Part shown: in pieces, positions 36,378-52,520 of the stretch | How positions within the stretch are numbered: position 1 is the stretch's first letter | Layout of the letters: every line of letters starts with the position of its first letter | Assembly (NCBI GenBank): GCA_028278525.1 | Contig: JANQEE010000045.1 | Coordinates: 124,001 to 188,000, forward strand | DNA from: Minwuiaceae bacterium | Lineage (GTDB): Bacteria; Pseudomonadota; Alphaproteobacteria; Minwuiales; Minwuiaceae | Reading direction: 5' to 3' | Length of the DNA stretch: 64,000 nt | The notes under the pieces: model-generated | The model's database searches: none | The model's input: the letters and a program-made list of their open reading frames with translations, nothing else | Told to the model about the DNA's origin: nothing | Made by a program: the position numbers and the translations under genes

Positions 36378-37724
36378 TCAGCCCTCGACAAACGCGCGGG
36401 ACAGACGGTCGGTGAGCGGACGCACGAAATAGCTAATCGCAGTGCGGCTGCCGGTCTGGATAAAGACCTCCGCCGGCATGCCGGGCACCAGTTCGATGCC
36501 GCCGGCCGACCAGCCGCCACTGTCGCTCAGACGAATACGGGCGTTGTAGTAGCGCGCGCCGCTGACGTCGTCGGTGAAGCTGTCGGCCGATACCGCGACG
36601 ACCTCGCCGGGCACCTCCGGCGTGGTTGCCTGATCGAAGGCCGACAGGCGGACCCGGGACTCCTGGCCCAAGCTCACCCGGTCAACGTCGGCGGCGGGGA
36701 CGCGGGCTTCGATCACCAGGTCCTCTCCGGCGGGCACCAGGTCAAGGATGTCGTCGCCCGGGCGGAGCACGCCGCCGACGGTATTCACCCGCATGCCGAC
36801 GACGATGCCGTCCTGGGGCGCCACGACGACGATCCGTTCGAGGCGTTCGGCGGCGGCAACGCGACGCTCCCGCAAGCTGGCGATCTGCGGTTCGATCTGG
36901 CGCAATTCGGCCGTGTTCGCTTCGTCGAAGTCGCGCTGGGCCTGCACCAGCTCCAACTTCAACTCTTCGATCCCGTTGCGGGCCCGGGCGATGCCGGCAT
37001 CGTGCTCCGCGACATTGCCGCGGATGCGTTCGGCCTGCCGCTCCAGCGACAGCAGCCGCGGCAACGTGGCATAGCCCTTCTCGTACAGATCGCGGAGGCC
37101 GGCCAATTCCCGATCGACCAGGGCGATTTCTTTCAGGTTCGAGGCGCGCTGGGCCTTGAGACCGCCGATCTCTTCTTTAAAGCGGACAATGCGCTGCCGG
37201 ATCAATCCGGCCTGCCCGGTGCGGCTGGCGCGCCGGGCCGCAAACAGCTTTTGCTGACCGGCCAGGATGGAGGCCACCGCGGGATCGTCCCGCCGCGCCA
37301 GCAAAGCCGACGGAAAGACAACGGTATCGGCACCGCCGATTTCGCCCAGAAGACGCGCCCGGCGGGCCAGCAACTCGTCGAGCTGACCTTCGACGACGCC
37401 GAGATTGGCGCTGTCGATGGTGCTGTCGAGCCGCAGCAGCGGCTGTCCGGCACGCACGGTATCGCCTTCGCCGACCAGGATTTCGCTGACGATGCCGCCT
37501 TCCAGATGCTGGATCGTCTTGCGGCTGGATTCCACGGCGAAGGCGCCGGACACCACGACCGCGCCGTCGAGCCTGGCATTCATGGCCCAGCCGGCAAACA
37601 CGGCGACCAAACCGAACAGCACGACCATGCCGCCCCACACATAGAAGCCGAGCCCATCGGACTTGGTTTCGGCTATCGGCAGGGTTTCGCCGTTATCGGG
37701 CGCGAGAACGAGAGAGCGGGTCAT
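36378..37724 (-). CDS. Type I secretion membrane-fusion (HlyD/PrtE-type) adaptor
   Basis: A 448-residue periplasmic adaptor that joins the ABC exporter to a TolC-type outer-membrane channel. It has a cytoplasmic N-terminus, one span at about 30-48, a long coiled-coil hairpin (about 110-280, rich in LDELLARRARL and LRDLYEKGYATLPRL) between two biotinyl-like halves, and a beta-barrel region. Its ATG overlaps the exporter stop by four bases. Third gene of the leftward operon that starts with the large repeat protein. No TolC gene lies in the window. Confidence 0.9.
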   Translation of the reverse strand: MTRSLVLAPDNGETLPIAETKSDGLGFYVWGGMVVLFGLVAVFAGWAMNARLDGAVVVSGAFAVESSRKTIQHLEGGIVSEILVGEGDTVRAGQPLLRLDSTIDSANLGVVEGQLDELLARRARLLGEIGGADTVVFPSALLARRDDPAVASILAGQQKLFAARRASRTGQAGLIRQRIVRFKEEIGGLKAQRASNLKEIALVDRELAGLRDLYEKGYATLPRLLSLERQAERIRGNVAEHDAGIARARNGIEELKLELVQAQRDFDEANTAELRQIEPQIASLRERRVAAAERLERIVVVAPQDGIVVGMRVNTVGGVLRPGDDILDLVPAGEDLVIEARVPAADVDRVSLGQESRVRLSAFDQATTPEVPGEVVAVSADSFTDDVSGARYYNARIRLSDSGGWSAGGIELVPGMPAEVFIQTGSRTAISYFVRPLTDRLSRAFVEG

Positions 37725-39454
37725 GAGTGCATCCTCCGGGGGAGAGTCGCGACGTTGGAGCTCGGTGTCGAAGGCAGGGCCTGGGTGGTCGCGGCGAGCA
37801 CATCGTCCTTAGGCCCGAACGCCTGCTGACGGCCGTTCTGCAAGACCAACAGGCGGTCGGCGGCTTCGATGGCGCTCGGCCGATGGGCCATGACCACGAC
37901 GATCCGGCCGCGGTGTTTCAATTCGCGGACGGCGTCGGCGAGCGCGCTGTCGCCTTCGGCGTCGAGGTTGGCGTTCGGCTCGTCGAGGACGATCAGGAAC
38001 GGATCGCCGTAGACGGCACGGGCGAGACCGAGGCGCTGACGCTGGCCGCCGGAGAGCCTGCTGCCTGCCTCGCCGATGACCGTGTTGTAGCCCTCCGGCA
38101 GGTCAAGGATCATGCCGTGACAGCCGGCAAGCTTGGCGGCGTCGACGATCGCTTCGGGTTCGGCGTCCTCGTCGAGGCGGGCAATGTTTTCGGCCACGGT
38201 GCCGTCGAACAGTTCGACATCCTGCGGCAGATAGCCGATCTGGGCGCCGAGGTCGGTCGGGTCCCACTGTTCCAGGGCAACGCCGTCGAGCCGGAGCGAG
38301 CCCTGTTGCGCCTGCCAGACACCGACCAGCAGGCGGGCCAGGGTCGATTTACCCGAGGCGCTGGGACCGATCACCGCCATCGCCTCGCCGGCCGCGAGGC
38401 TGAAGGTCAGGCCGGAGACGACCGGACGGCGCATCTCCGGCGGCCCGGCATTGACGTGGTCGACGTCCAGCCGGCTGTTGGCGCGCGGCAGAGCCATGCG
38501 CCCCTGGGCGTGCGGATGCGCCCGCAGCAGTGCGGCGAGTCGCTTGTGCGCGGCACGGGCGCCGACGAAGCCGCGCCAGTTGCCGATGGCCTGCTCCACC
38601 GGCGCCAAAGCCCGACCCAGGATGATCGACGCGGCGATCATCGCGCCCGGCGTAATGGCCTCCTGGATGACCAGGGCGGCGCCGGCCCCAAGAATGGCGG
38701 CCTGCAAAACAAGACGGCCGGTTTTCGAGGTCGCGGTCAACAGGCCGGCACGGTCGCTGGCCTTCGCCTGCAGCCGCAGGCCGTCGCGCTGGCGCATCAG
38801 CCAGCGGCGGCGCAGCCCGTCCAGCATGCCCATGGCGCGCAGCACCTCGGCGTTGCGCTGGCCGGCGGCGGCCATGACGCCGCCTTCGGAGAAGCGATGG
38901 CTGGCGCGGCCGAGCGCGCGGCGGGTTATCAGGTCGTTCAGCAGCGCAACGGCGAACAGGAAAACCGCGCCCACCGCGGCCACGAGAGCGAGGACGGGAT
39001 GCAGCAGATAGATGACGCCGATATAGATGGGGACCCAGGGCGAGTCGAAGAAGGCGAACGGCCCGGAACCGGATAGGAATTCACGTAGGGAACGGAGATC
39101 GCGCAGCGGCTGGTCGTCGTTGCTCTCCGCGCTGCGGATCGAGCGGGACACCAGGGTCTCGAAAACGCGGCCGTCAAGCCGGCGTTCGATCCTGGCGCCG
39201 ATGCGGACCAGGATGCGGGAGCGGATCAGCTCCAGGATGCCCATGACGAGCAGCAGCCCGATGACCAGGACGGTCAGCGCAACCAGGGTTTCTTCGCTGT
39301 GACTGGTCAGGACGCGGTCGTAGACCTGCATCATGTAGAGCGGGCTGGCCAGCATGAGAAGATTGATGAACAGACTGAACAGGCCGGTCATGGCGAGGCC
39401 GCCGGTGCTGGCGCGCAGGGCGTTGCCGACCTCGGATCGGGCTTCCGCGTTCAT
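37721..39454 (-). CDS. Type I secretion ABC exporter (PrtD/HlyB-like, without C39 domain)
   Basis: A 577-residue half-transporter with an N-terminal membrane domain of about six spans and a C-terminal ATPase: Walker A GPSASGKST, signature LSGGQRQRLGLARA, Walker B LIVLDEPNANLD. No peptidase C39 or CLD domain precedes the spans, as in PrtD/AprD-type exporters of RTX cargo. The start at 39454 has AGGAG upstream; the frame is open further but with no signal. It lies between the cargo and adaptor genes, 97 bases after the cargo stop. Confidence 0.92.
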   Translation of the reverse strand: MNAEARSEVGNALRASTGGLAMTGLFSLFINLLMLASPLYMMQVYDRVLTSHSEETLVALTVLVIGLLLVMGILELIRSRILVRIGARIERRLDGRVFETLVSRSIRSAESNDDQPLRDLRSLREFLSGSGPFAFFDSPWVPIYIGVIYLLHPVLALVAAVGAVFLFAVALLNDLITRRALGRASHRFSEGGVMAAAGQRNAEVLRAMGMLDGLRRRWLMRQRDGLRLQAKASDRAGLLTATSKTGRLVLQAAILGAGAALVIQEAITPGAMIAASIILGRALAPVEQAIGNWRGFVGARAAHKRLAALLRAHPHAQGRMALPRANSRLDVDHVNAGPPEMRRPVVSGLTFSLAAGEAMAVIGPSASGKSTLARLLVGVWQAQQGSLRLDGVALEQWDPTDLGAQIGYLPQDVELFDGTVAENIARLDEDAEPEAIVDAAKLAGCHGMILDLPEGYNTVIGEAGSRLSGGQRQRLGLARAVYGDPFLIVLDEPNANLDAEGDSALADAVRELKHRGRIVVVMAHRPSAIEAADRLLVLQNGRQQAFGPKDDVLAATTQALPSTPSSNVATLPRRMHS

Positions 39455-39550
39455 GGGACTATCGCTCCTGGACAGAATGGTATGGCGGACTGACAAGGGG
39501 GCGGGATCGGGGCCCGGCGCAAGCGCCGGACCCCTCCCCCTTAAGCCCAA

Positions 39551-42500
39551 TCAGACGATGAAGTCGTTCTCGTCGATCTGATTGACGTCGATGCCGGTCA
39601 GACGAACCGAGTCGCCGGCCCCAACGTCGAGGTCGATGACCGTGTCCGCGCCGTCCTGACGGGCGGCCGCCACGGCGTCGGCCGCGTCGTCGAAGAAGGC
39701 CGAGACATCGAGCTGGTCGGAGTCGTCCTCGAAGTTGGTGACCGTGTCCTGGCCGGTCCCGAGGTTGAAGACGAACGTGTCCGCGTTGTCGCCACCGGTC
39801 AGCGAGTCGTTTCCGCTGCCACCGTCGATCGAGCCGTTGACGCGACCGTCGGCGCCGTCGAAGACGTCGTTGCCGAAGCCCAGCACGACGTCGCCGTTCA
39901 GCGTACCCTCGTTGACAACCGTGAGATCGGCCTCGACCTCCACGGCATCAATCGCGAGGCCGTCGCCGTCGCCATCCGCGTCGCCGGTGATGGTGCCGCG
40001 GTTGACGAGTTCGCCGTCGAGAACAACATCGAAACCGAGCTCGACGCCGTCGGTGTCCGCCTCGATCGTCCCGCGATTGACGATATCGCCGGTGATGGAG
40101 ACGACCGGGCCGATTTCGATGCCGTCGCTGCCGGCTTCGATCCGACCGCTGTTGACGATGTCGCCGACCAGGGCCGAGTCGGGATCGAAGTCAATGCCGT
40201 CGTCGACGGCCAGGATTCGACCGTTGTTGACGATGTCGCCTTCAACGGTGACACCCGGGTTGATGTCGATGCCGTCGTCGCTGACATCGATCAGGCCGTT
40301 GTTGACGATGTCGCCCCGGAAGATGACAGAGTCGCCTATGCCGGAGGACACAATGATGCCATTGCCCGTGAGGTCCCCGACGCCATCGCCACGGCCGCGG
40401 ACCGTACCGTCGTTGACGACGCTGGCCTCGACCACATCGCCGACCGTATCACCGATCTGCAACGAAATGCCGGAACCATCATTGCCTTCGCCGGCATCGA
40501 TCAGGCCCGAGCGTTCGTTGGTGATGGTGAAGTCCTCGGCCGTCGCGTCGGCGTAGACGGTGCCATTGCGCTGATCGCCGGTGCCGAGGATGTCGCCGTA
40601 GTTGTAGAGATCCACGCCGCTGCCGTCGATGTTGACCGCCCGGCTGTCACTTTGGATCGTGCCACGGTTGACGACTTCCGCATCGTGTTCGGCAACGCCG
40701 AAGTAAAGGCCGTTGTTGGCGCCTTCGATCAGGCCGTGCCGGGTGTTAAGGACCGTGCCGTCAAAGGCGACGCCGTTGGCGATGCGGATACCCGCGGTCG
40801 GGCCGACCTGGCTTTCCGAGGTCACCCTGCCGGAATTGCGGATGTCGCCGCGGAAGGTGGTGCCGCCGCCGGCAACGCCGGAGAAGACACGAATGCCGTC
40901 GCCGGCCAAGCCGGTGTCGGCCGCCGCCTGGCCGCGGCCCTCGATGGTGCCGTAGTTGACGACCTCCGCGTTGACGACGTCGCCGAAGACCTCACCGGTC
41001 TGCAACGCGACACCCGCGCCCTGGTTGCCTTCGCCGGCATCGATCAGACCGCGGTTCTCGATCGAGTAATCATCCGCCGTGGCATCGGAATAGACCGTGC
41101 CGTTACGCTGATCGCCGGTGCCGAGGATGTCGCCGTAGTTCTTCAGCTCCACGCCCGTGCCATCGATGTTGACGGCGCGGCTGCCGCTTTGGATGGTGCC
41201 GTAATTGACGACCTCGGCATCGTGTTCTCCGGTGCCGAAGTAAAGGCCGTTGTTGGCACCGTCGATCAGGCCGTGACGGGCATTGGTGATCTTACCGTCG
41301 AAACCGACGCCGTTGGCGATGCGGATGCCCGCGGTCGGACCCACCAGGCTTTCGGATGTGACGTCGCCGCTGTTGTAGATGTCGCCGCGGAAGGTGGTGC
41401 CACCGCCGGATACGCCGGAGAACACGCGGATACCGTCGCCGGCCAAGCCGGTGTCGGCCGCCGCCTGACCACGGCCTTCGACCGTGCCGTCGTTGACGAC
41501 TTCCGCACGCACCACGTCGCCGACAACCTCGCCGGTCTGTAGCGCGATACCCGCACCCTGGTTGCCTTCACCGGCATCGATGCGGCCGTAGTTGGCGATC
41601 GAATAGTCGTCCGCCGTGGCGTCGGAATAGACGGTGCCGTTGCGCTGATCGTCGGTGCCGAGGATGCGGCCGTAGTTCTTCAGCTCCACGCCGGTGCCGT
41701 CGATGTTGACCGCGCGGCTGCCGCTTTGGATGGTGCCGAAATTGACGGCTTCGGCGTCGTGTTCGGCGTCGCCGAAATAGAGGCCGTTGTTGGCGCCGTC
41801 GATCAGGCCGTGACGGGCATTGGTGATCTTGCCGTCGAAGCTCAGCCCGTCGGAAATGCGGATCGCCGCGGTCGGACCCTGATTGCTTTCCGACGTCACA
41901 TCGCCGGCGTTGTAGATGTTGCCGCGGAAGGTGGTGCCGCCGCCGTCGACGCCGGAGAAAACACGGATGCCGTCTCCCGCCTGGCCGACATTGGCCGCCG
42001 CCTGACCGCGCCCGGCGATTTCGCCGAAGTTGGTCACCTGCGCACGCACGGCATCGCCGACATGGTCGCCGGTCTGCAGCGCGATGCCCGCGCCGTCGTT
42101 GCCTTCGCCCGCGTCGACGCGGCCGCGCGAGCCGTTGAGGATGCTGTAGTCTTCCGCCGTGGCGTCGGAATAGATGGTGCCGTTGCGCTGGTCACCGGTG
42201 CCGAGGATATCGCCGAAGTTGCGGACGGAGATGTCTTCGCCGCCGATATTAACGGCGCGGCTGTCGCTCTGGATCGTACCATGGTTGGTCAGCCGGCCCG
42301 AGGACTCGCCGCCGTTGGCGAAATTTACGCCGTTTATCCCGCCGTCGATCAAACCCTTGTTGCGGATTTCGGCGTCCCGGCCGGAAACTTCGATGGCGGT
42401 GTCTTCGGCAAGAATCTCGCCATGGCGCCGGTTGTCGATGTATGCCCTATCGCCCTGGACGTCGATGGTCGCGGTGTCGCCGGTGGTCTCCGCGGTTCCG

Positions 42501-42706
42501 CTGTTGCGGAAGGAGACCCGGTCGTCGTCGATGGTCAGAACCGGCTCGCCGTCCACGAGCGTTTCGTCGCCCTTGTTCAAAACGAAGCGCTGACCGTCGA
42601 AATCGCTGGTCAGAGGCTGATCGTTGCCATCCGGAATGACTGTCCGTCCGAAGAAGGAGGAGAACTGGCGCTGGATAAAGCCCAGTAAGGAACCTAGAAA
42701 GCTCAT
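39551..42706 (-). CDS. Large secreted repeat protein with RTX-like calcium-binding end, predicted type I cargo
   Basis: A 1051-residue acidic protein with no signal peptide. An N-terminal segment (1-115) is followed by about four copies of a 179-residue unit (about residues 116-800) containing motifs such as NGLYFG, GTIQSGSRAVNIDG, ILGTGDQRNGTVYSDAT and GDGIRVFSG. Five 25-residue repeats (DIVNNG, then DGI) follow at about 800-960. The RTX-type calcium motif GGSGNDSLTGGDNADTF and a C-terminal QIDENDFIV resemble a type I secretion signal. The repeats look like stacked beta-helix rungs, plausibly an adhesin or surface-layer-like fibre. It is followed at once by the exporter and adaptor. Confidence 0.88.
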   Translation of the reverse strand: MSFLGSLLGFIQRQFSSFFGRTVIPDGNDQPLTSDFDGQRFVLNKGDETLVDGEPVLTIDDDRVSFRNSGTAETTGDTATIDVQGDRAYIDNRRHGEILAEDTAIEVSGRDAEIRNKGLIDGGINGVNFANGGESSGRLTNHGTIQSDSRAVNIGGEDISVRNFGDILGTGDQRNGTIYSDATAEDYSILNGSRGRVDAGEGNDGAGIALQTGDHVGDAVRAQVTNFGEIAGRGQAAANVGQAGDGIRVFSGVDGGGTTFRGNIYNAGDVTSESNQGPTAAIRISDGLSFDGKITNARHGLIDGANNGLYFGDAEHDAEAVNFGTIQSGSRAVNIDGTGVELKNYGRILGTDDQRNGTVYSDATADDYSIANYGRIDAGEGNQGAGIALQTGEVVGDVVRAEVVNDGTVEGRGQAAADTGLAGDGIRVFSGVSGGGTTFRGDIYNSGDVTSESLVGPTAGIRIANGVGFDGKITNARHGLIDGANNGLYFGTGEHDAEVVNYGTIQSGSRAVNIDGTGVELKNYGDILGTGDQRNGTVYSDATADDYSIENRGLIDAGEGNQGAGVALQTGEVFGDVVNAEVVNYGTIEGRGQAAADTGLAGDGIRVFSGVAGGGTTFRGDIRNSGRVTSESQVGPTAGIRIANGVAFDGTVLNTRHGLIEGANNGLYFGVAEHDAEVVNRGTIQSDSRAVNIDGSGVDLYNYGDILGTGDQRNGTVYADATAEDFTITNERSGLIDAGEGNDGSGISLQIGDTVGDVVEASVVNDGTVRGRGDGVGDLTGNGIIVSSGIGDSVIFRGDIVNNGLIDVSDDGIDINPGVTVEGDIVNNGRILAVDDGIDFDPDSALVGDIVNSGRIEAGSDGIEIGPVVSITGDIVNRGTIEADTDGVELGFDVVLDGELVNRGTITGDADGDGDGLAIDAVEVEADLTVVNEGTLNGDVVLGFGNDVFDGADGRVNGSIDGGSGNDSLTGGDNADTFVFNLGTGQDTVTNFEDDSDQLDVSAFFDDAADAVAAARQDGADTVIDLDVGAGDSVRLTGIDVNQIDENDFIV
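39930..40310 (-). repeat. Five 75-base repeats coding 25-residue units
   Basis: Inside the secreted repeat protein, 25-residue units beginning with DIVNNG or DIVNRG variants occur five times in a row, with diverged tails such as INPGVTVEG and GPVVSITG. At DNA level the GTTGACGATGTCGCC-like block recurs at about 75-base steps. They are coding repeats, not a mobile element. Confidence 0.8.
40300..42361 (-). repeat. Four tandem about 537-base coding repeats
   Basis: The DNA block near GCGCTGATCGCCGGTGCCGA recurs at about 40568, 41108, 41646 (GTCGG variant) and 42187, steps of about 540 bases. This matches the four 179-residue units of the secreted protein. The two central copies are the most alike and the outer ones more diverged, consistent with recent internal duplication. 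Confidence 0.8.
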
Positions 42707-43109: not shown

Positions 43110-43820
43110 TCATTCCGACGATGCGGTCAGTCTTTCCTGATCGATGACGTCGTGGAGGGCGCGCACTTCGTTGATCACGGCCATGTCGCGCTTGATGTGG
43201 ACGCCGTATTTGCGGAGGCGCTGAAAAACGCGCGAGAGACTCTCCGCCTTCATGCCGAGTTTGCTGGCGATCAGGACTTTTTCATACGGCAGGCGCACCG
43301 TGCAGGCGCCGCTGGCCACCGGACTCTGCGCGATCAAAAACTCGGCGACGCGCTGAATCCCGGACAAACCCTTCATCTGCTCGATTTCGTCCACCAGACG
43401 GCGCACATGGCGCGATACCGACGCCAACATGACCAGCGCCACCTGAGGGTTGCGGGAAATGCTGGACACGATGCGATCGATCGGGATCTCCGCGAGGCGA
43501 ACGTCCGTCACCGCCTCCGCGTAAGCCGGATAATTGTCCCGCGCGAGAGCGGCGATCTCGGCGAAGCTCTGACCGCGGGTGAAGATGCCGATTACGGCCT
43601 CCTCCCCCGCCGCGGTCGTACGGAACACCTTTACCCAGCCCTCGACCACGATGAAGAACCGGCGGGCCGGGTCGTCCTGCTGAAAAATGGTCGTGCCGCG
43701 CGGGACCGACAGCCCGCGAATACCTTTGGCTATATCCGAGTAGAATTCGTCGGGAATGCCGTTGAATAACGGGCTCTTGCGGACGAATGCCTCAAGACCC
43801 TCGTCGGATTCCTGTCCCAT
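43110..43820 (-). CDS. Crp/Fnr-family regulator (DNR/NNR-like)
   Basis: A 236-residue regulator with a cyclic-nucleotide-binding fold (about 15-130, GTTIFQQDDPARRFFIVVEGWVKVF) and a C-terminal winged helix (LPYEKVLIASKLGMKAESLSRVFQRLRKYGVHI). It lacks the N-terminal cysteine cluster of oxygen-sensing Fnr, which fits the NO-sensing, haem-using DNR/NNR subgroup. It diverges from nosR across a TTGAC-N4-GTCAA box. Likely activates N2O reduction under low oxygen with nitrogen oxides; the ligand is inferred. Confidence 0.9.
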   Translation of the reverse strand: MGQESDEGLEAFVRKSPLFNGIPDEFYSDIAKGIRGLSVPRGTTIFQQDDPARRFFIVVEGWVKVFRTTAAGEEAVIGIFTRGQSFAEIAALARDNYPAYAEAVTDVRLAEIPIDRIVSSISRNPQVALVMLASVSRHVRRLVDEIEQMKGLSGIQRVAEFLIAQSPVASGACTVRLPYEKVLIASKLGMKAESLSRVFQRLRKYGVHIKRDMAVINEVRALHDVIDQERLTASSE

Positions 43821-43935: not shown

Positions 43936-46161
43936 GTGACCGACTTTAACAGCCCTTTAGAACGGCTGCACATGGTCCGAATATTTCTTTTGTTCGTTTT
44001 CATAGCCGCCGCCGTGGCCCCGGGTGCGGCCGGCGCGGCCGCGGATCAAGGCGCGCTGCTGCGCAAATTCCTGCGCAAGCTGGCGCCGGCGGACATGAAT
44101 CCGAATGCCGACCGGTACGGCCGCATACGCACCGACATTCCCGCGATACCGCTGCTGAGCAAGGGCGAGACGGTCGGATGGGCCTTTCTCACCTCCGATT
44201 TCGTGTCGACGACGGGCTATTCGGGCAAACCGATCCATGTGGTCGTCGCGGTCGACCGGGACGCCATGATCACCGGCGTCCGCCTGGTGGAGCACGCGGA
44301 ACCGATCGTCCTGATCGGCATCCCCGACAGCAAGATCAAGGCCCTGACCGAGCGTTACAAAGGGCTGGACCTGAAGGTCGAGGCCGAAGCCGGCGGGTCC
44401 GGCCACGACCTGGAGATCATATCCGGCGCGACGGTGACGATTATCGTGATCGACGATTCGATCGTCCGCGCCGGCCTGAAAGTCGCCCGCGCCTTAGGGC
44501 TCGGCGGACTGGCGCCGCCCGTCGCGACCGGGCCGGTCTACGAACTGAACACCGATGATCGCGAGGTTCGGACCTGGGCGGCGTTGAGCGCCGACGGTTC
44601 GGTCGGGCGGCTGACCCTGGATATCGGCCAGATCAACCAGGCCTTCCGCGACAGCGGCGACGCCAAGGCGGCCGCGCGGCCCGAACCCGGCGACGACTCC
44701 GAGACGTTCATCGACCTGCAGGCGGCGCTGGTCAGCGTGCCGGCGATCGGCTTAAGCCTGCTGGGGCCGGCCGAATACGGAAACCTGCAAAACAATCTGG
44801 CCGACGGCGACCATGCGATCCTGGTTGCCGGGCGCGGCCGCTATTCGTTCAAGGGGTCCGGCTATGTGCGCGGCGGCCTGTTCGACCGGATCCAGGTGAT
44901 CCAGGGCGATACCAGCTTCCGGTTTCGCGATAAACAGCACCGACGACTGGGCCAGATCGCCGCGGCGGGCGCGCCGAGCTTTACCGAACTGGACCTGTTC
45001 ACGATCCCCGCCGGTTCCGGGTTCGACCCGACCAAGCCCTGGCGGCTGCAGCTTCTGACGCAGCGGGCCATCGGAGCGATCAAGAAGTCCTTCCTTACCT
45101 TCGATCTGGCCTACCGATTGCCGCAATCCTACCTGCGCGACGTCGCGCCGGCGGCCGGTGCGAACGTCCCCGCCGCCCTGATCGCGGATGACGAAGCGGC
45201 GGCGAAGACGGCGCTCTGGCAGCGGATCTGGCGGGACCGCGCAGTCGAGATCGTCATCCTGGTGACGGCGCTTGGCGTGCTGACGATCCTGTTCTTCTTC
45301 CAACTGCCGCTGACCCGCAACGAAACCGCCGTGTTCTGGTTCCGCATCGGTTTCCTGACCTTCACGCTGGTCTGGCTCGGCTGGTACGCCAACGCGCAAC
45401 TTTCGGTGGTCAACGTGCTGGCGGTAACCAACGCGGTCGCGACCGACTTCAGCTGGGACGCGTTCCTGATCGACCCGCTGGTCTTCATCCTCTGGTTCAG
45501 CCTGGCGGCGTCGCTGATCTTTTGGGGACGCGGCGTGTTCTGCGGCTGGCTCTGCCCGTTCGGCGCGCTGCAGGAACTGCTGAACAGGATCGCCAAGCTC
45601 TGCCGCATCCCGCAATGGACAGTGCCCTGGCCGCTGCACGAACGGCTCTGGCCGATCAAATACATGCTGTTCCTCGGCCTGTTCGGGCTGTCGCTCTATT
45701 CGCTGCCGCTGGCCGAGCGCTTCGCCGAGGTCGAGCCGTTCAAGACAGCGATCATCCTGAAATTCCAGCGCGCCTGGCCGTTCGTCGCCTTCGCCGTCGC
45801 GCTGCTGATCGTCGGATTGTTCGTCGAACGGTTCTATTGCCGCTATCTCTGCCCGCTGGGCGCGGCGCTGGCGATCCCGGCCAAGATCCGGGTGTTCGAA
45901 TGGCTCAACCGCTACCGGGAATGCGGCAACCCGTGCCAACGCTGCGCCCAGGAATGCATGGTCCAGGCAATCCACCCGGACGGTCATATCAGCCCGAACG
46001 AGTGCCTCTACTGCATGCATTGCCAGGTGCTCTATCAGGACGATCAGAAATGCCCCGTCTGCATCAAGAAGCGGAAACGCTACGAGGCGTTCCTCAAGAG
46101 TCCGCCGCCCGGAAGCCGTGGGGCGACGGAAGCCAAGCCGACAGTTTCATCGCCATCATGA
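43936..46161 (+). CDS. nosR: NosR, membrane flavo-iron-sulfur protein for N2O reductase
   Basis: Electron-delivery protein needed for N2O reductase activity, 741 residues. A periplasmic FMN-binding domain (about 70-200) is followed by several spans and NapH-like cysteine motifs [11 protein letters not shown] and [12 protein letters not shown] ferredoxin end ([12 protein letters not shown], then CLYCMHCQ) follows. GTG 43936 has AGGAG five bases upstream. ATG 43972 begins a cleaner signal peptide ([19 protein letters not shown]), so the start is uncertain. First gene of nosRZDFYLX, divergent from the Crp/Fnr regulator. Confidence 0.95.
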
Positions 46162-46192
46162 TCAATATGGAAATCATACGAGGGAGAAGGAC

Positions 46193-48142
46193 ATGACCGA
46201 CAAGACACCCAAGCCGAAGCAAGCGGACGACGACTTCGCGGTGACGAGACGCGGCATGCTGGGCGGAACCGCGACCACCGTCCTGGCAGCCGGCACCGGC
46301 GCGATCGGCGGCGCGGCGACCATGATCGGCGCCGGCGCCGTGCAACCGGCCAAGGCGCAGGGCCGCGGCCAGAAATACGCGTTGGATCCGGGCGAGCTGG
46401 ACGAATATTACGGCTTCTGGTCGAGCGGCCAGTCGGGCGAGCTTCGCATCATGGGCATGCCGTCGATGCGCGAACTGATGCGCGTGCCGGTGTTCAACCG
46501 CTGCAGTGCGACCGGCTGGGGCCAGACCAACGAAAGCCTGAAGGTAATGACCGACGGCCTGCTGCCGGAGACCAAAGCCTATCTGGCGGCGCACGGCATG
46601 CAGACCTACGAGAACGGCGACCTGCACCACCCGCATATGTCGTTCACTGACGGCACCTACGACGGCCGCTATCTGTACATGAACGACAAGGCGAACACGC
46701 GGGTCGCCCGGGTGCGCTGCGACGTGATGAAGTGCGACAAGATCATCGAGATCCCGAACGCCAGCGACATCCACGGGCTCAGGCCGCAAAAGTTCCCGCG
46801 CACCGGCTACGTCTTCGCCAACGGCGAACACCGCATTCCGCTGCCGAACGACGGCATGGTGCTGGACAAGCCGGACCAGTATGTCGCGATCTTCACGGCC
46901 ATCGACGGCGACACGATGGAAGTCGCCTGGCAGGTGATCGTCGACGGCAACCTGGACAATTGCGACGCCGACTACCAGGGCAAGTACGCCGTCTCGACCT
47001 GCTACAATTCCGAGGAAGGCATCAACCTGGCGGAGATGACGTCGAGCGAAACCGACTGGGCGGTGATCTTCAATATCAAGCGGATCGAGGACGGCGTCGC
47101 CAAGGGCGACTTCACCCGGCATAACGGCGTGCCGGTGCTGGACGGCCGCAAGGGCTCCCCCTACACCGCCTACGTGCCGGTGCCGAACAGCCCGCACGGC
47201 TGCAACACCGCGCCAGACGGCAAGCATATCGTGATCAACGGCAAGCTGTCGCCGACGGTCACGGTGCTGGACGTCACCAAGATCGACGCACTGTTCGAAA
47301 GCGGCGCCGACCCACGCTCCTGCGTCGTCGCCGAACCGGAACTGGGTCTGGGGCCCCTGCACACCGCGTTCGACGGCAAGGGCAACTGCTACACCACCCT
47401 GTTCCTGGACAGCCAGATGGCCAAATGGAACATGGAAAAAGCGATCCGCCGGTATAACGGTGAGGATGTCGATCCGATCATCGCCAAGACGGACGTGCAC
47501 TACCAGCCGGGCCACAACCATTCGTCGATGGGCGAGACCAAGGACGCCGACGGCAAGTGGCTGGTGTCGCTGAACAAGTTCTCCAAGGACCGCTACCTCA
47601 ATGTGGGTCCGCTGAAGCCGGAGAACGAGCAACTGATCGACATCTCGCTCGACCCGCCGAAGGTGGTGCATGACGGGCCGACCTTCGCGGAGCCACACGA
47701 CTGCATCATCGTGCATCGGTCCAAGGTGTCACCCGCGTCGATCTGGCAACGCGACGATCCGATGTGGGAGGAAGCAAGGCGCCAAGCCGCGGCCGACGGC
47801 GTGGAACTGGAGGACGGCGCGGACGAACCGATCCGCGACGGCAACAAGGTGCGCGTCTACATGTACTCGGTGGCGCCCAACTTCTCGATGGAGAAATTCA
47901 CGGTGAAGCAGGGCGACGAGGTGACGATCTACGTGACCAACATCGACGACGTGGACGACCTGACGCACGGCTTCACGCTGGGCAATCACGGCATCGCGTT
48001 CGAGGTGGGACCGCAGGCGACCGCGTCCGTGACGTTCACCGCCGACCGGCCGGGCGTGCACTGGTTCTATTGCCAGTGGTTCTGCCACGCGCTGCATATG
48101 GAGATGCGCGGCCGAATGATCGTAGAGCCGCGGTCGAGCTGA
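46193..48142 (+). CDS. nosZ: Nitrous oxide reductase, clade I (TAT-exported)
   Basis: Reduces N2O to N2 in the periplasm, 649 residues. A twin-arginine signal ([17 protein letters not shown]) marks clade I. The N-terminal seven-bladed propeller carries the CuZ histidines, e.g. [12 protein letters not shown] and HGCNTAP. The C-terminal cupredoxin has the CuA motif [12 protein letters not shown]. The start at 46193 follows AGGGAGAAGG; the open frame upstream overlaps nosR. Second gene of the nos operon. Confidence 0.97.
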
Positions 48143-48144
48143 CG

Positions 48145-49398
48145 ATGACGCGTGTCCGGGCAATCGTCGGCCTTGCGGCCCTGTTCTGCGCGGTGGCGGT
48201 CCCCGCCGCCGCGCGGGACCGGACCGTGGCGGCCGGCTCGGGCGCGCTTCAGTCGGTGCTGGAGCAAGCCGGGCCGGGCGATGTTATCCGGCTTGGGCCC
48301 GGCGACCATAAGGGGCCGGTCGTACTGACGCAGCCGGTCCAACTGATCGGGGAGCCGGGCGCGCGGCTTGTGGGAACGGGCGACGGCACAGTGATCACCA
48401 TCACCGGGGCGGACGTGACCGTCTCCGGGCTCGAAGTGGTCGGGTCCGGGTCGTCGCACCAGACGCTGGATTCCGGGATCAAGGCGACGAAGACAGCGAC
48501 CAATGCAAGAATCCTGGACAACCGGCTGGAGGGCAACCTGGTCGGCATCGACGTGCATGGCGCGACCGATACGGTGGTGCGCGGCAACGTCATCGTCGGG
48601 CGGCGCGACCACCGGGTGAACGACCGGGGCAACGGCATCTATATCTGGAACGCGCCGGGCACCGTGGTGGAAGGCAACAGTGTCCGCTACGGACGCGACG
48701 GCATCTTCGTCAATACCAGCCGGGACAACATCTTCCGCGGCAACCGGTTCGAAGACCTGCGTTTCGCCGTCCATTACATGTACACCAACAACAGCGAGGT
48801 CTCCGGCAACGTCTCGCTGAACAACCATATCGGCTATGCGCTGATGTATTCGACCGACCTGATCGTGCGGGGCAACCGGTCGCTCGGCGACCGCGATCAC
48901 GGGATCATGCTGAACTACGCCAACCGGGCGACGGTCGAGGGCAATCTGGTCCGCCGCGGGGCTAAGAAATGCCTGTTCATGTACAACGCCAACAAGAACC
49001 GGATCGCCGGCAACCGGTTCGAGGCCTGCGAGATCGGCGTGCATTTCACGGCGGGATCGGAGCGGAACGCCATCACCGGCAATGCCTTCATCGGCAACCG
49101 GACCCAGGTGAAATATGTCGGCTCCCGCTGGCTGGACTGGAGCGCGGACGGCCGAGGTAACTACTGGAGCGACCACGCCGCGTTCGACATCGACGGCGAC
49201 GGCCTGGCCGACCTGCCTTACCGGCCGAACGACCTGATGGACCATATCCTGTGGACGCAGCCGGCGGCACGCCTGCTGCTCGGCAGCCCGGCAGTGCAGT
49301 TGATCCGCTGGTCGCAGTCGGCGTTTCCAGCGTTGCTGCCCGGCGGTGTCGTCGACAGCAAACCGCTGATGAAGCCGGTTGAGGATGGCGGCGCATGA
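48145..49398 (+). CDS. nosD: NosD, periplasmic copper/sulfur maturation factor
   Basis: Beta-helix periplasmic protein that, with the NosFY transporter, supplies sulfur for the CuZ cluster. A signal peptide (LAALFCAVAVPAAA) is followed by parallel-helix repeats (NRLEGNLVGIDVHG, NIFRGNRFEDLRF, and others). 417 residues from ATG 48145, two bases after the nosZ stop; the open frame upstream is shadowed by nosZ. Its end overlaps the nosF ATG by four bases. Confidence 0.94.
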   Translation: MTRVRAIVGLAALFCAVAVPAAARDRTVAAGSGALQSVLEQAGPGDVIRLGPGDHKGPVVLTQPVQLIGEPGARLVGTGDGTVITITGADVTVSGLEVVGSGSSHQTLDSGIKATKTATNARILDNRLEGNLVGIDVHGATDTVVRGNVIVGRRDHRVNDRGNGIYIWNAPGTVVEGNSVRYGRDGIFVNTSRDNIFRGNRFEDLRFAVHYMYTNNSEVSGNVSLNNHIGYALMYSTDLIVRGNRSLGDRDHGIMLNYANRATVEGNLVRRGAKKCLFMYNANKNRIAGNRFEACEIGVHFTAGSERNAITGNAFIGNRTQVKYVGSRWLDWSADGRGNYWSDHAAFDIDGDGLADLPYRPNDLMDHILWTQPAARLLLGSPAVQLIRWSQSAFPALLPGGVVDSKPLMKPVEDGGA

Positions 49399-50297
49399 CC
49401 GGTCCGGCCATCACGATTGACGCGGTGACCAAGCGCTATGGGAAGCATATGGCGCTGGACGGCGTCACGATGAACGTCGCGGCGGGCGAACGGCTGGCGC
49501 TGCTCGGCCATAACGGCGCCGGCAAGACGACGTTGTTGAAACTAGTGCTAGGCCTGACGGCAGCGGGCAATGGGGAGATCGAGGTCTTGGGCCAGAGGCC
49601 GGGCATGGATGCCGTGAGACGGCACTGCGCCTACCTGCCGGAAAACGTAGCGTTCCATGAGTCGCTGACCGGACTCGAACAGCTTGCGCTGTTCCTGCGG
49701 CTGAAGGGCGGGTCGGCGCGCGAGGCGCCGGCTCTGCTCGACCGGGTCGGTCTTAGCGATGCGATGGACCGGCGAATCGGCGCCTATTCGAAAGGCATGC
49801 GGCAGCGGCTGGGCCTGGCCCAGATCCTGATCGGCACGCCGCGTATCGTCATCCTGGATGAGCCCACCAGCGGCCTGGACCCGCTGTCGCGCGAGATGTT
49901 CTACGCGATGACGGCCGAACTGGCGGAGACGGGCGCGGCCGTGGTGCTGTCGTCGCATGCGCTGACTGAACTGGAGGCGCGCACCGACCGGATCGTGATC
50001 CTGCGGCGGGGACAGGTCGCGGCGAACGGCCGCCTGTCAGCATTGCGGGCGGGCGCGGGCCTGCCCATCCGGGTGCGCGTCGAGACCAAACCGGACGCGG
50101 CGGACGACGTCGCGCGGCAGGTCGGCGGGAGGCGGGTCAACGGATGCGCCGTTGAATTGGTCTGCGATGCGGATCAGAAGGTGCGGCGTATTGCCGACGT
50201 GGCGGCGCTGGGCACGGCCATCGAAGACATCGATGTCGTCCCGCCGAGCCTGGAAGACGTCTATCGGCATTACAGCAGGTCGGAGGGGGAGCGATGA
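49395..50297 (+). CDS. nosF: NosF, ATPase of the nos ABC transporter
   Basis: Cytoplasmic ATPase for the NosDFY transporter, 300 residues. Walker A is GHNGAGKTTL near 42-51, signature YSKGMRQRLGLAQ, Walker B RIVILDEPTSGLD. It overlaps nosD and nosY by four bases each. The tail after the ATPase domain is typical of NosF. Confidence 0.95.
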   Translation: MTGPAITIDAVTKRYGKHMALDGVTMNVAAGERLALLGHNGAGKTTLLKLVLGLTAAGNGEIEVLGQRPGMDAVRRHCAYLPENVAFHESLTGLEQLALFLRLKGGSAREAPALLDRVGLSDAMDRRIGAYSKGMRQRLGLAQILIGTPRIVILDEPTSGLDPLSREMFYAMTAELAETGAAVVLSSHALTELEARTDRIVILRRGQVAANGRLSALRAGAGLPIRVRVETKPDAADDVARQVGGRRVNGCAVELVCDADQKVRRIADVAALGTAIEDIDVVPPSLEDVYRHYSRSEGER

Positions 50298-51118
50298 CCC
50301 GGCGCATCCTCGCCATCATGGCAAGCGACATGCGGATCGCAATGCGCAACCGCTGGGTCCTCACCGCGACCCTGCTGATGACCGGTTTCGGCCTGATCCT
50401 GGCGTTCGCCGGGTCGGCGCCGGCCGGGACGCTGGGCGTCGACCGCCTGACGGCGACAATCTCCAGCCTTGCCACGCTCTCGGTCTACCTGGTGCCGCTG
50501 ATCGCCTTGCTGCTGTCCTACGACTCCATCGCCGGCGAGACCGAACGGGGCACCCTGCCGCTGCTGCTGACCTATCCGGTCGCGCGGTGGGAGGTGCTGG
50601 CCGCGAAATTCGGCGCCCAGCTTTTCGTGCTGGCGGCGGCGGTGGTCGTCGGGTTCGGGGTGACCGCAGCGGCCGTCGCGGTGACCGGTGGAGTCTCCGA
50701 GCAAAGCCTCATCCACTTGTCGAGACTGACCTGGAGCGCCGTTGTGCTGGGCGCCGCCTTCCTGGCCGTCGGCAATTGCCTGAGCGCCATGGTGCGCCAG
50801 CCGGGCACGGCCGCCAGTCTGGCCGTCGCCGTCTGGGTGATCGCCGTGGTGATGTTCGACGTGATCCTGCTGGGCGCGGTGGTTGCCGACGACGGCGGAG
50901 CGTTCACCAAGACGGTGTTTCCGTGGCTGCTGGCGATCAGCCCGACCGACGCGTTCCGGCTGTTCAACCTGGCGGCGCTGGAATCCGGAGCGGCGGGACT
51001 GGGGCTCGCCACCACGACCCATGCCCTGCCCGCTCTCGCACCGCTGCTGTCGCTGCTCGCCTGGCCGTTGGCATTGCTGGCCGTCACGGCGGCAATCTTC
51101 CGGAGGCTCGAACCATGA
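50294..51118 (+). CDS. nosY: NosY, permease of the nos ABC transporter
   Basis: Integral-membrane subunit of the NosDFY complex, 274 residues with about six spans (e.g. LSVYLVPLIALLLSYDSI; FGAQLFVLAAAVVVGFGV). The SPTDAFRLFNLAALES segment is typical of NosY and related ABC-2 permeases. Translationally coupled to nosF and nosL by four-base overlaps. Confidence 0.93.
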   Translation: MTRRILAIMASDMRIAMRNRWVLTATLLMTGFGLILAFAGSAPAGTLGVDRLTATISSLATLSVYLVPLIALLLSYDSIAGETERGTLPLLLTYPVARWEVLAAKFGAQLFVLAAAVVVGFGVTAAAVAVTGGVSEQSLIHLSRLTWSAVVLGAAFLAVGNCLSAMVRQPGTAASLAVAVWVIAVVMFDVILLGAVVADDGGAFTKTVFPWLLAISPTDAFRLFNLAALESGAAGLGLATTTHALPALAPLLSLLAWPLALLAVTAAIFRRLEP

Positions 51119-51645
51119 AACCGTTCGTCCTTGTCTGTGCGGCAATCGCCCTTCTGGCGGGTTGTCAGGAGCAAGAGGCCGCGACGGTCCCGGGCCCGAT
51201 TTCGCTGACCCGCGAAGCCGCCGGCCATTACTGCCAGATGACGGTGCTGGACCATCCCGGGCCGAAAGCGCAGGTGCATATGGCGGGGTACGTCTACCCG
51301 CTTTGGTTCTCCCAGGTGCGGGACGCGTTCGCTTTCGACCGGATGCCGGAGGAGATCGCCGAGGTCACGGTGATCTATGTGAACGACATGGGCGCGGCGG
51401 CGGCGGAGTGGGACGCGCCGGGCGCGGACAACTGGATTCCGGCCAAGGCCGCGTTCTACGTCGTCGGCAGCGACAGGCGCGGCGGCATGGGCGCGCCGGA
51501 ACTGGTGCCGTTCGCCGAGCGGGCCGCCGCATCGGCGTTCGCCGAACGGCACGGCGGCACGGTGATCGGCTATGCGGATATCGAAGACCCGATGGTGCTG
51601 GCGCCTATCGACGTGACACCACTTCAACCGGGGTCACACGGATGA
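51115..51645 (+). CDS. nosL: NosL, copper-binding lipoprotein
   Basis: Outer-membrane or periplasmic lipoprotein that delivers copper to NosZ, 176 residues. The lipobox LLAGC puts the lipidated Cys at about 17. The conserved copper motif CQM in HYCQMTVLDHPG follows. Its start overlaps the nosY stop and its stop overlaps the nosX start, each by four bases. Confidence 0.93.
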   Translation: MKPFVLVCAAIALLAGCQEQEAATVPGPISLTREAAGHYCQMTVLDHPGPKAQVHMAGYVYPLWFSQVRDAFAFDRMPEEIAEVTVIYVNDMGAAAAEWDAPGADNWIPAKAAFYVVGSDRRGGMGAPELVPFAERAAASAFAERHGGTVIGYADIEDPMVLAPIDVTPLQPGSHG

Positions 51646-52520
51646 CCGGGCTGACGCGGCGGCGGTTCATCGCGATATCGGCGGCGTCGCTGGCCGGCGG
51701 CATCTCCGCGGCCGGCGCCGCAAAGTCAACGGTCTGGCGCGGCATCGCGCTGGGCGCCGAAGCGGAGATCCGGCTGGATACCGGCGATCCGGCGGGAGCG
51801 CGGGCGGTCATCGATTCCTGCCGGTTGGAAATCGCGCGGCTGGAAAAGCTGTTCAGCCTGTATCGCACCGATAGCGCCATCGCGCGGCTGAACCGCGACG
51901 GCGCCGTCGACAATCCGGACCCGGATTTCCTGGCGTTGCTGTCGCTGGCGCGGTCGGTTCACCGCAATACGGGCGGCCTGTTCGATCCGACCGTGCAGCC
52001 GGTCTGGTCGGCCTATGCCGAACGCCGCCCGGTGCAAGGACATATCGGCTTCGATGCCGTCTCGATCGCGCGCGACAGGGTGGCCTTCGACCGGCCGGGC
52101 ATGGCGATCACACTGAACGGCATCGCCCAGGGATTCATCACCGACCGGGTGGCCAGCCTGCTGCGCGGGCGCGGCCTGCGGCATGTGCTGGTCGATATGG
52201 GCGAACTGCGCGCGCTGGACGGCCGCCGGGACGGCAGCGGCTGGCCGGTGCGGATCGCCGGTTCCCCGGCCAAGACCATTCGATTGCGGGATCGGGCGCT
52301 GGCGACCTCCGCACCGCTCGGCACCACGTTCGACCAGGCGGGCCGGCTCGGCCATATCATCGATCCGCGAACCGGGCGGCCAATGACCGGCGGGCGCGCG
52401 GTAACGGTGGAGGCGAAGACGGCCGCCATTGCCGATGCACTATCGACGGCTTTCTGTCTGATGCCCGAGCCGGCGAGCCGGCAGGCGCTGCGCCGCTACC
52501 CGGACGCCCGGCTGGTTTAG
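51642..52520 (+). CDS. nosX: NosX, ApbE-like FAD:protein FMN transferase
   Basis: Attaches FMN to NosR so that electrons can reach NosZ. The 292-residue ApbE-family protein has a TAT-like start (LTRRRFIAISAAS), LFSLYRTDSAIARLNR, the substrate segment SAYAERRP, and the metal/FAD-binding segments ITLNGIAQGFITDRVA and IDPRTGRPM. Last gene of the operon, with a four-base convergent overlap on the reductase gene. Confidence 0.93.
   Translation: MTGLTRRRFIAISAASLAGGISAAGAAKSTVWRGIALGAEAEIRLDTGDPAGARAVIDSCRLEIARLEKLFSLYRTDSAIARLNRDGAVDNPDPDFLALLSLARSVHRNTGGLFDPTVQPVWSAYAERRPVQGHIGFDAVSIARDRVAFDRPGMAITLNGIAQGFITDRVASLLRGRGLRHVLVDMGELRALDGRRDGSGWPVRIAGSPAKTIRLRDRALATSAPLGTTFDQAGRLGHIIDPRTGRPMTGGRAVTVEAKTAAIADALSTAFCLMPEPASRQALRRYPDARLV

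What the first reader, a model, noticed from the sequence alone, without database searches (positions are those of the whole stretch)
36378..42706. Self-contained type I secretion operon for a new repeat fibre
A 1051-residue protein with four 179-residue and five 25-residue repeats plus a single RTX motif is followed by its ABC exporter and adaptor. The repeats (NGLYFG, GTIQSGSRAVNIDG, GDGIRVFSG) are not a family I can name; they look like stacked beta-solenoid rungs. It may be a surface adhesin, mat-forming fibre or S-layer-like protein.
Basis: partly seen in the sequence, partly recalled or inferred. Interest (0 to 1): 0.75.

Follow-up and report, generated by a model that had tools for sequence, protein, structure and literature searches.

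The report
Secreted beta-solenoid with swapped secretion systems
An alphaproteobacterium carries an operon that makes and exports a long, repeat-built extracellular protein of a family missing from Pfam, and in related bacteria the same repeat protein is exported by a completely different secretion machine, so evolution appears to have moved one surface protein between two export routes.

Summary
On the minus strand, 42706-36378, a 1051-aa cargo gene is followed by a PrtD-type ABC exporter and an HlyD adaptor. The cargo has three full 179-181-aa repeats, a fourth that decays, about five 25-aa repeats, one strict RTX nonapeptide and the C-terminus DFIV. AlphaFold2 gives a confident all-beta solenoid (pLDDT 93). 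The 179-aa unit is six N-x-G-x-I rungs; the 25-aa repeats are minimal rungs of the same kind. The unit has no credible Pfam match and no PDB relative by sequence. It is rare and patchy (3 of 385 Alphaproteobacteria, 1 of 194 cyanobacteria), under purifying selection, and varies in copy number; known sources include coral skeleton and sponge. The operon is not fully self-contained: the only TolC-type gene found is on another contig. Unexpectedly, the same passenger (N-cap plus repeats) occurs in autotransporters of other Alphaproteobacteria (Sec-like signal peptide, PF03797 barrel). One passenger family thus uses type I and type V secretion, with only its ends exchanged. It is most likely a calcium-dependent surface or matrix adhesin/fibre; that function is inferred, not shown.

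The parts
39551..42706 (-). Cargo gene, 1051 aa: N-terminal leader (res. 1-20), N-cap (about 20-139), four 179-181-aa units (140, 321, 500, 679), five 25-aa rungs (799-923), RTX/type I signal region (about 930-1051, ends DFIV)
   Evidence: ORF and translation, repeats, AlphaFold2 model pLDDT 93.2, RTX C-terminus, dN/dS 0.09-0.27 against relatives
39509..39534 (-). GC-rich hairpin (11-bp core stem) between cargo stop and ABC start, without a T run; probable attenuator or message stabiliser
   Evidence: z-score -3.4; an equivalent hairpin of different sequence in all 8 cargo-ABC intergenic regions, z below -3.4 in 7 of 8
37721..39454 (-). Type I ABC exporter, PrtD type, 577 aa
   Evidence: TIGR01842 736 bits, cut-off 510; groups with other cargo-linked ABCs
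36378..37724 (-). HlyD-type periplasmic adaptor, 448 aa, overlaps the ABC gene by 4 bases
   Evidence: TIGR01843 376 bits, cut-off 208.65

Best explanation
The operon makes a rigid extracellular beta-solenoid and its dedicated PrtD/HlyD type I exporter; the outer-membrane channel is supplied in trans. Steps: (1) cargo and exporter genes are transcribed together, with a hairpin between them that probably keeps exporter synthesis below cargo synthesis; (2) the uncleaved C-terminal RTX/DFIV signal engages the ABC exporter and the unfolded, acidic, cysteine-free chain leaves in one step; (3) outside, calcium folds the RTX roll, which nucleates the solenoid; (4) the rod, whose length follows the number of six-rung units, displays the same conserved surface pattern once per unit and acts as an adhesin or matrix fibre. 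The passenger is not tied to type I secretion: the same N-cap and repeat units are carried by autotransporters in other Alphaproteobacteria, so the two ends have been exchanged in evolution while the passenger stayed. Shown here by computation: gene order, homology, predicted fold class, shared passenger, recurrent hairpin. Inferred: secretion itself, calcium folding, attenuation, adhesion.
For: Cargo-ABC-HlyD order in eight genomes (window, L017, L019, L022, L024, L026; L046, L047). PrtD and HlyD types. RTX C-terminus like EglC and AlgE6; complete type I homologues nearly all end in D/N-F plus hydrophobic residues. All-beta solenoid model; weak shape matches to RTX proteins, RsaA and the adhesin autotransporters Fap2, Ag43 and pertactin. 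Seven of seven autotransporter homologues tested have PF03797; N-caps homologous, 42% identity, E 2e-24. Copy number differs at one locus, four units in L018, three in L021. Purifying selection. TolC-type gene elsewhere in the genome. Relatives come from coral skeleton and a sponge (PMC9868349, PMC9860996).
Against: No direct evidence of adhesion. No recognised surface-retention module. Strongly conserved polar residues (Q, R, N, Y, D, H) could equally mean catalysis or ligand binding of another kind. Some relatives (L018, L021, L027) lack an adjacent exporter. Only one strict RTX motif, so calcium dependence of this member is uncertain.
Confidence: 0.6

Rival explanations
1. A secreted polysaccharide-active enzyme: a right-handed beta-helix lyase, epimerase or hydrolase with one site per repeat unit, exported like AlgE epimerases or rhizobial glycanases.
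For: Nearest shapes of the repeat region include fucoidan lyase FdlA, iota-carrageenase, DFA-IIIase and AlgE4; the C-terminus resembles those of EglC and AlgE6; invariant Q, R, Y, D and H residues in every unit.
Against: No shape match below E 0.02 and no CAZyme family in Pfam; tandem copies of a whole six-rung unit with varying number are unusual for an enzyme; homologues are surface autotransporters.
Confidence: 0.17
2. A released effector or signal protein that acts on other cells or on a host (coral, sponge), not a structural or attachment protein.
For: Known sources of relatives are coral skeleton and sponge (PMC9868349, PMC9860996); no surface retention module recognised; PrtD-type exporters of serralysins release their cargo.
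Against: No toxin or enzymatic domain found; autotransporter relatives end in a barrel that can hold the passenger on the surface; several near-identical units per chain.
Confidence: 0.11
3. An S-layer-like protein that tiles the cell surface, as RsaA does in Caulobacter.
For: Acidic RTX protein with no cysteine and adjacent type I exporter genes, as for RsaA; weak shape matches to RsaA (E 4e-3, TM 0.15-0.18).
Against: No sequence match to RsaA or any S-layer family; number of units varies from 2 to 4 among type I homologues, which would change a lattice constant; very sporadic distribution.
Confidence: 0.1

Closest known systems
PrtDE/AprDE/PrsDE-type type I secretion operons (TIGR01842 + TIGR01843)
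   Same: ABC and adaptor types, gene order cargo-ABC-HlyD, uncleaved C-terminal RTX region ending in an acidic residue and hydrophobic residues
   Different: Cargo is a six-rung-unit beta-solenoid instead of a protease, lipase or glycanase; recurrent intergenic hairpin; channel not in the operon
pRL90140, parallel beta-helix protein exported by PrsDE in Rhizobium leguminosarum (PMC2275737)
   Same: Beta-helix repeats plus RTX motifs, found in culture supernatant and PrsDE-dependent
   Different: Its 32-aa repeats resemble cyanobacterial beta-helix proteins; sequence relation to this unit was not tested
Adhesin autotransporters (pertactin, Ag43, TibA, Fap2)
   Same: Extracellular beta-solenoid passenger; homologues of this very passenger carry a signal peptide and a PF03797 barrel
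   Different: The window's protein has neither a Sec signal peptide nor a barrel; no sequence match to these named adhesins
RsaA and other RTX S-layer proteins
   Same: Acidic RTX protein with adjacent type I ABC and adaptor genes
   Different: Only weak fold resemblance, no sequence match, variable repeat number, sporadic distribution
LapA/BapA-type RTX adhesins
   Same: Repetitive extracellular protein exported by type I secretion
   Different: Those have Ig-like or cadherin-like extender domains and an N-terminal retention module; this one is a solenoid and no such module was recognised

Membership tests
Type I secretion system, PrtD type | ABC exporter scoring over the TIGR01842 cut-off | tested here: met
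   736 bits, cut-off 510.15
Type I secretion system, PrtD type | HlyD-type adaptor over the TIGR01843 cut-off | tested here: met
   376 bits, cut-off 208.65
Type I secretion system, PrtD type | Outer-membrane channel of TolC type | tested here: met
   One TIGR01844 protein over the cut-off in the genome, on contig C70, not in the operon
Type I secretion system, PrtD type | Cargo with RTX motifs and an uncleaved C-terminal signal | tested here: inconclusive
   One strict and one degenerate nonapeptide, C-terminus like EglC and AlgE6, ends DFIV; export itself not testable here
Classical autotransporter (type Va) | C-terminal barrel PF03797 and N-terminal Sec signal peptide | tested here: not met
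   Absent from the window's cargo; PF03797 present in seven of seven homologues tested; signal peptides read by eye
LapA-type RTX adhesin | N-terminal retention module and Ig-like or cadherin-like extender domains | tested here: not met
   No Pfam domain in the cargo; the whole chain is modelled as a solenoid
RsaA-type S-layer protein | Sequence relation to a known S-layer family; regular surface array | tested here: not met
   No sequence match, only weak shape match; the array was not testable
Right-handed parallel beta-helix fold class | Stacked short parallel strands with regular rungs | tested here: inconclusive

The most novel reading that the evidence does not exclude
One extracellular solenoid has been re-plumbed in evolution between two unrelated export machines. 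Type V proteins (signal peptide, passenger, barrel) and type I proteins (leader, passenger, RTX tail) share N-cap and repeats, exchange repeat units with each other (units 2 and 3 of the G425 type I protein sit inside the autotransporter clade), and the short N-terminal leader of the type I forms is a relic of the signal peptide, perhaps now a surface anchor.
Probability: 0.35. Interest if true: 0.75.

Novelty: new variant of a known kind. Interest (0 to 1): 0.58.

Why it matters
Secretion route and passenger are usually discussed together: type V passengers are thought to leave by folding outside into beta-helices, type I cargoes to fold outside with calcium. Here the same passenger is found behind both machines. 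That gives a matched pair for testing what a passenger needs for export and folding, and whether the C-terminal end alone sets the route. The family is also a possible attachment protein of bacteria living in coral skeletons and sponges, where such proteins are poorly known.

Tried and rejected
Pfam, NCBIfam and PDB sequence searches with the cargo, and Pfam and PDB searches with the repeat, found no family; RAMA and DUF7713 hits at E 0.01-0.02 in some members were judged chance. Sigma-70 promoter and T-tailed terminator scans gave nothing above shuffles. Rfam and tRNA searches gave nothing. Plasmid and viral collections held no relative. PHROG hits lie on short repeat stretches and were judged compositional. 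The Crp/Fnr-type regulator gene next to the cargo was considered as its regulator and set aside: it was not seen at the other cargo loci inspected, and it adjoins the nos cluster. A TetR regulator looks linked in five other loci but not here. The G425 chimaera is not accepted as shown: AU test p = 0.056. Mapping invariant residues on the model surface was not possible because model coordinates are not exported.

Full report
Observation. The cargo runs 42706->39551, preceded by a plausible ribosome-binding site (AGAGGA). The ABC exporter starts at ATG 39454 (not at the earlier TTG that the ORF list gives) and ends at 37721. The HlyD gene 37724->36378 overlaps it by four bases. The repeats are far beyond chance: self-similarity at offset 179 is 1.38 BLOSUM units per residue, while 200 shuffles never exceed -0.55. 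There are three complete units of 179-181 aa and a fourth that keeps its first half and then becomes the series of 25-aa repeats. One strict RTX nonapeptide is present at residue 962.

What the repeats are. Each unit holds six N-x-G-x-I-like motifs spaced 22, 28, 33, 40, 30 and 26 residues (read); the terminal repeats are the same motif at 25 residues. Long and short repeats are therefore rungs of one solenoid with loops of different length. AlphaFold2 of the whole chain with 14 sequences gives mean pLDDT 93.2 and pTM 0.83, nearly all beta, with only residues 1-18 below 50. A two-unit fragment gives pTM 0.91. Against the PDB the whole chain finds RTX proteins (lipase 5e-4, serralysin 4e-3) and, weakly, RsaA and Fap2. 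The repeat region alone finds mostly right-handed beta-helices, none below E 0.02. Neither the cargo nor the unit (27 members) has a credible Pfam match, and the unit profile finds no PDB sequence.

Secretion. The ABC is PrtD type (736 bits, cut-off 510) and the adaptor HlyD type. The genome has two other PrtD-type ABCs over the cut-off and one TolC-type protein, on other contigs. The cargo's last 115 residues resemble the C-termini of EglC and AlgE6. It is acidic (pI 4.05), has no cysteine and ends DFIV; nearly all complete type I homologues end in D/N-F and hydrophobic residues. From my own knowledge, an acidic residue followed by hydrophobic ones at the very end is the export motif of PrtDEF-type proteases.

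Relatives. A scan of genome contigs gave 12 loci with cargo relatives. Cargo-ABC-HlyD order is seen in L017, L019, L022, L024 and L026 and in L046 and L047, which with the window makes eight operons. ABCs next to cargoes group together, apart from the genome's other two PrtD-type ABCs (support 91/100, not a fully supported fork), which fits cargo and exporter travelling together. In all eight operons a GC-rich hairpin lies between cargo stop and ABC start. Sequences differ but a hairpin is always there, with z below -3.4 in seven. It lacks a T run and probably stabilises the cargo message or reduces read-through; that role is inferred. Five other loci carry an upstream TetR gene on the opposite strand, homologous among themselves at 42-82%. 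Selection is purifying: dN/dS 0.09 for L018/L021 and 0.11 for L025/L028. Two Acaryochloris MAGs carry the cargo amid cyanobacterial-looking genes; in one, a quite different ABC with a weak C39-like region and an adaptor lie downstream.

Distribution. With the unit profile, 3 of 385 genomes of the class, 4 of 399 of a phylum-wide draw (the window genome counted in both) and 1 of 194 cyanobacteria (the seed itself) have it. Matches are either very strong or absent. No member turned up in plasmids or viral contigs. The PL and IP MAGs come from skeletons of Porites lutea and Isopora palifera (PMC9868349), and Pelagibius sp. Alg239-R121 is a sponge isolate (PMC9860996). I do not know the sources of the other MAGs or of the window, so the host link is a lead, not a statistic.

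The unexpected part. The phylum-wide draw and the order of G662 gave long open frames with 3-7 units that begin with a Sec-like signal peptide (read by eye) and end in an autotransporter barrel: PF03797 at 1e-41 to 7e-53 in all seven tested. The relation is not limited to the repeats. The cap 'TxIPxGDNQxRTS...', which in the type I proteins follows a leader of about 20 residues, follows directly after the signal-peptide AxA site in the closest autotransporters; over 115 residues it is 42% identical, E 2e-24. So the passengers are homologous from cap to repeats and the two ends differ: leader and RTX tail, or signal peptide and barrel. A tree of 91 units separates type V from type I units (99/97), except that units 2 and 3 of the type I protein in G425 fall within the type V clade (100/95) while its first and last units do not. 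Forcing all type I units together costs 33 log units but is not rejected (AU p = 0.056), so unit exchange is suggested, not shown. Last units of most type I proteins group together, in keeping with a fixed capping place, whereas some middle units (window, L017) resemble their neighbour in the same protein, as expected from duplication within a gene. The direction of the change of secretion system is unresolved because the tree is unrooted.

Function. The likeliest reading is a rigid display rod or matrix fibre. RTX proteins fold outside with calcium (PMC3034196), solenoid length follows unit number, and each unit repeats an invariant pattern (S-x-S-R-A, Q-R-N-G-T-x-Y-x-D, G-R-G, G-x-R-x-F-x-G, G-L-Y-x-G-x3-H). 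The polar residues in that pattern seem more than a solenoid core needs and suggest a ligand site repeated along the rod, or an active site. I give adhesin/fibre 0.6, polysaccharide-active enzyme 0.17, released effector 0.11 and S-layer 0.10.

Known precedents. A beta-helix protein exported by PrsDE is documented in Rhizobium leguminosarum (pRL90140, PMC2275737), and RTX S-layer proteins and adhesins are well known (PMC3034196). I found no paper in the open-access library that reports one passenger family shared by type I and type V systems, but most subscription papers and all bioRxiv preprints were outside that library. I therefore class this as a new variant of a known kind.

Noticed in passing
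window 43936-52520 (+): A nitrous-oxide reductase cluster (nosR by NCBIfam, then by reading nosZ, nosD, nosF, nosY, nosL and nosX) starts about 1.2 kb upstream of the cargo gene, with a Crp/Fnr-type regulator gene (43110-43820, minus) between them.
   Followed up: partly
L018, L019 (records JANQQD010000032.1 and JANQQD010000199.1): These contigs are labelled Anaerolineae (Chloroflexota), but the genome with the same hits (G892) is in the same class as the window and the same genus as the alphaproteobacterial G155; the public label looks wrong or the MAG mixed (9% contamination).
   Followed up: partly
L058 4770-8288 and 10104-14846; L047 5569-9729: Some type I relatives in Acaryochloris and G425 carry CHRD-like domains between the solenoid and many RTX repeats (Pfam hits in P0005 and P0007; P0008 by reading), so the C-terminal half is modular.
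   Followed up: no
L020, L021, L022, L026, L027, upstream of the cargo: A TetR-family gene on the opposite strand, homologous among the five loci, suggests a co-inherited repressor of the cargo that the window's locus lacks.
   Followed up: partly
L091 2928-6776: An autotransporter homologue (G806) whose frame ends before the barrel, while close relatives keep it: a recent truncation or an assembly error.
   Followed up: no
L002 and L062 (window genome, contig C5: 12158-14282, minus strand): A second type I system in the same genome: a PrtD-type ABC next to a 2663-residue open frame whose end resembles this cargo's RTX C-terminus (40% identity).
   Followed up: no
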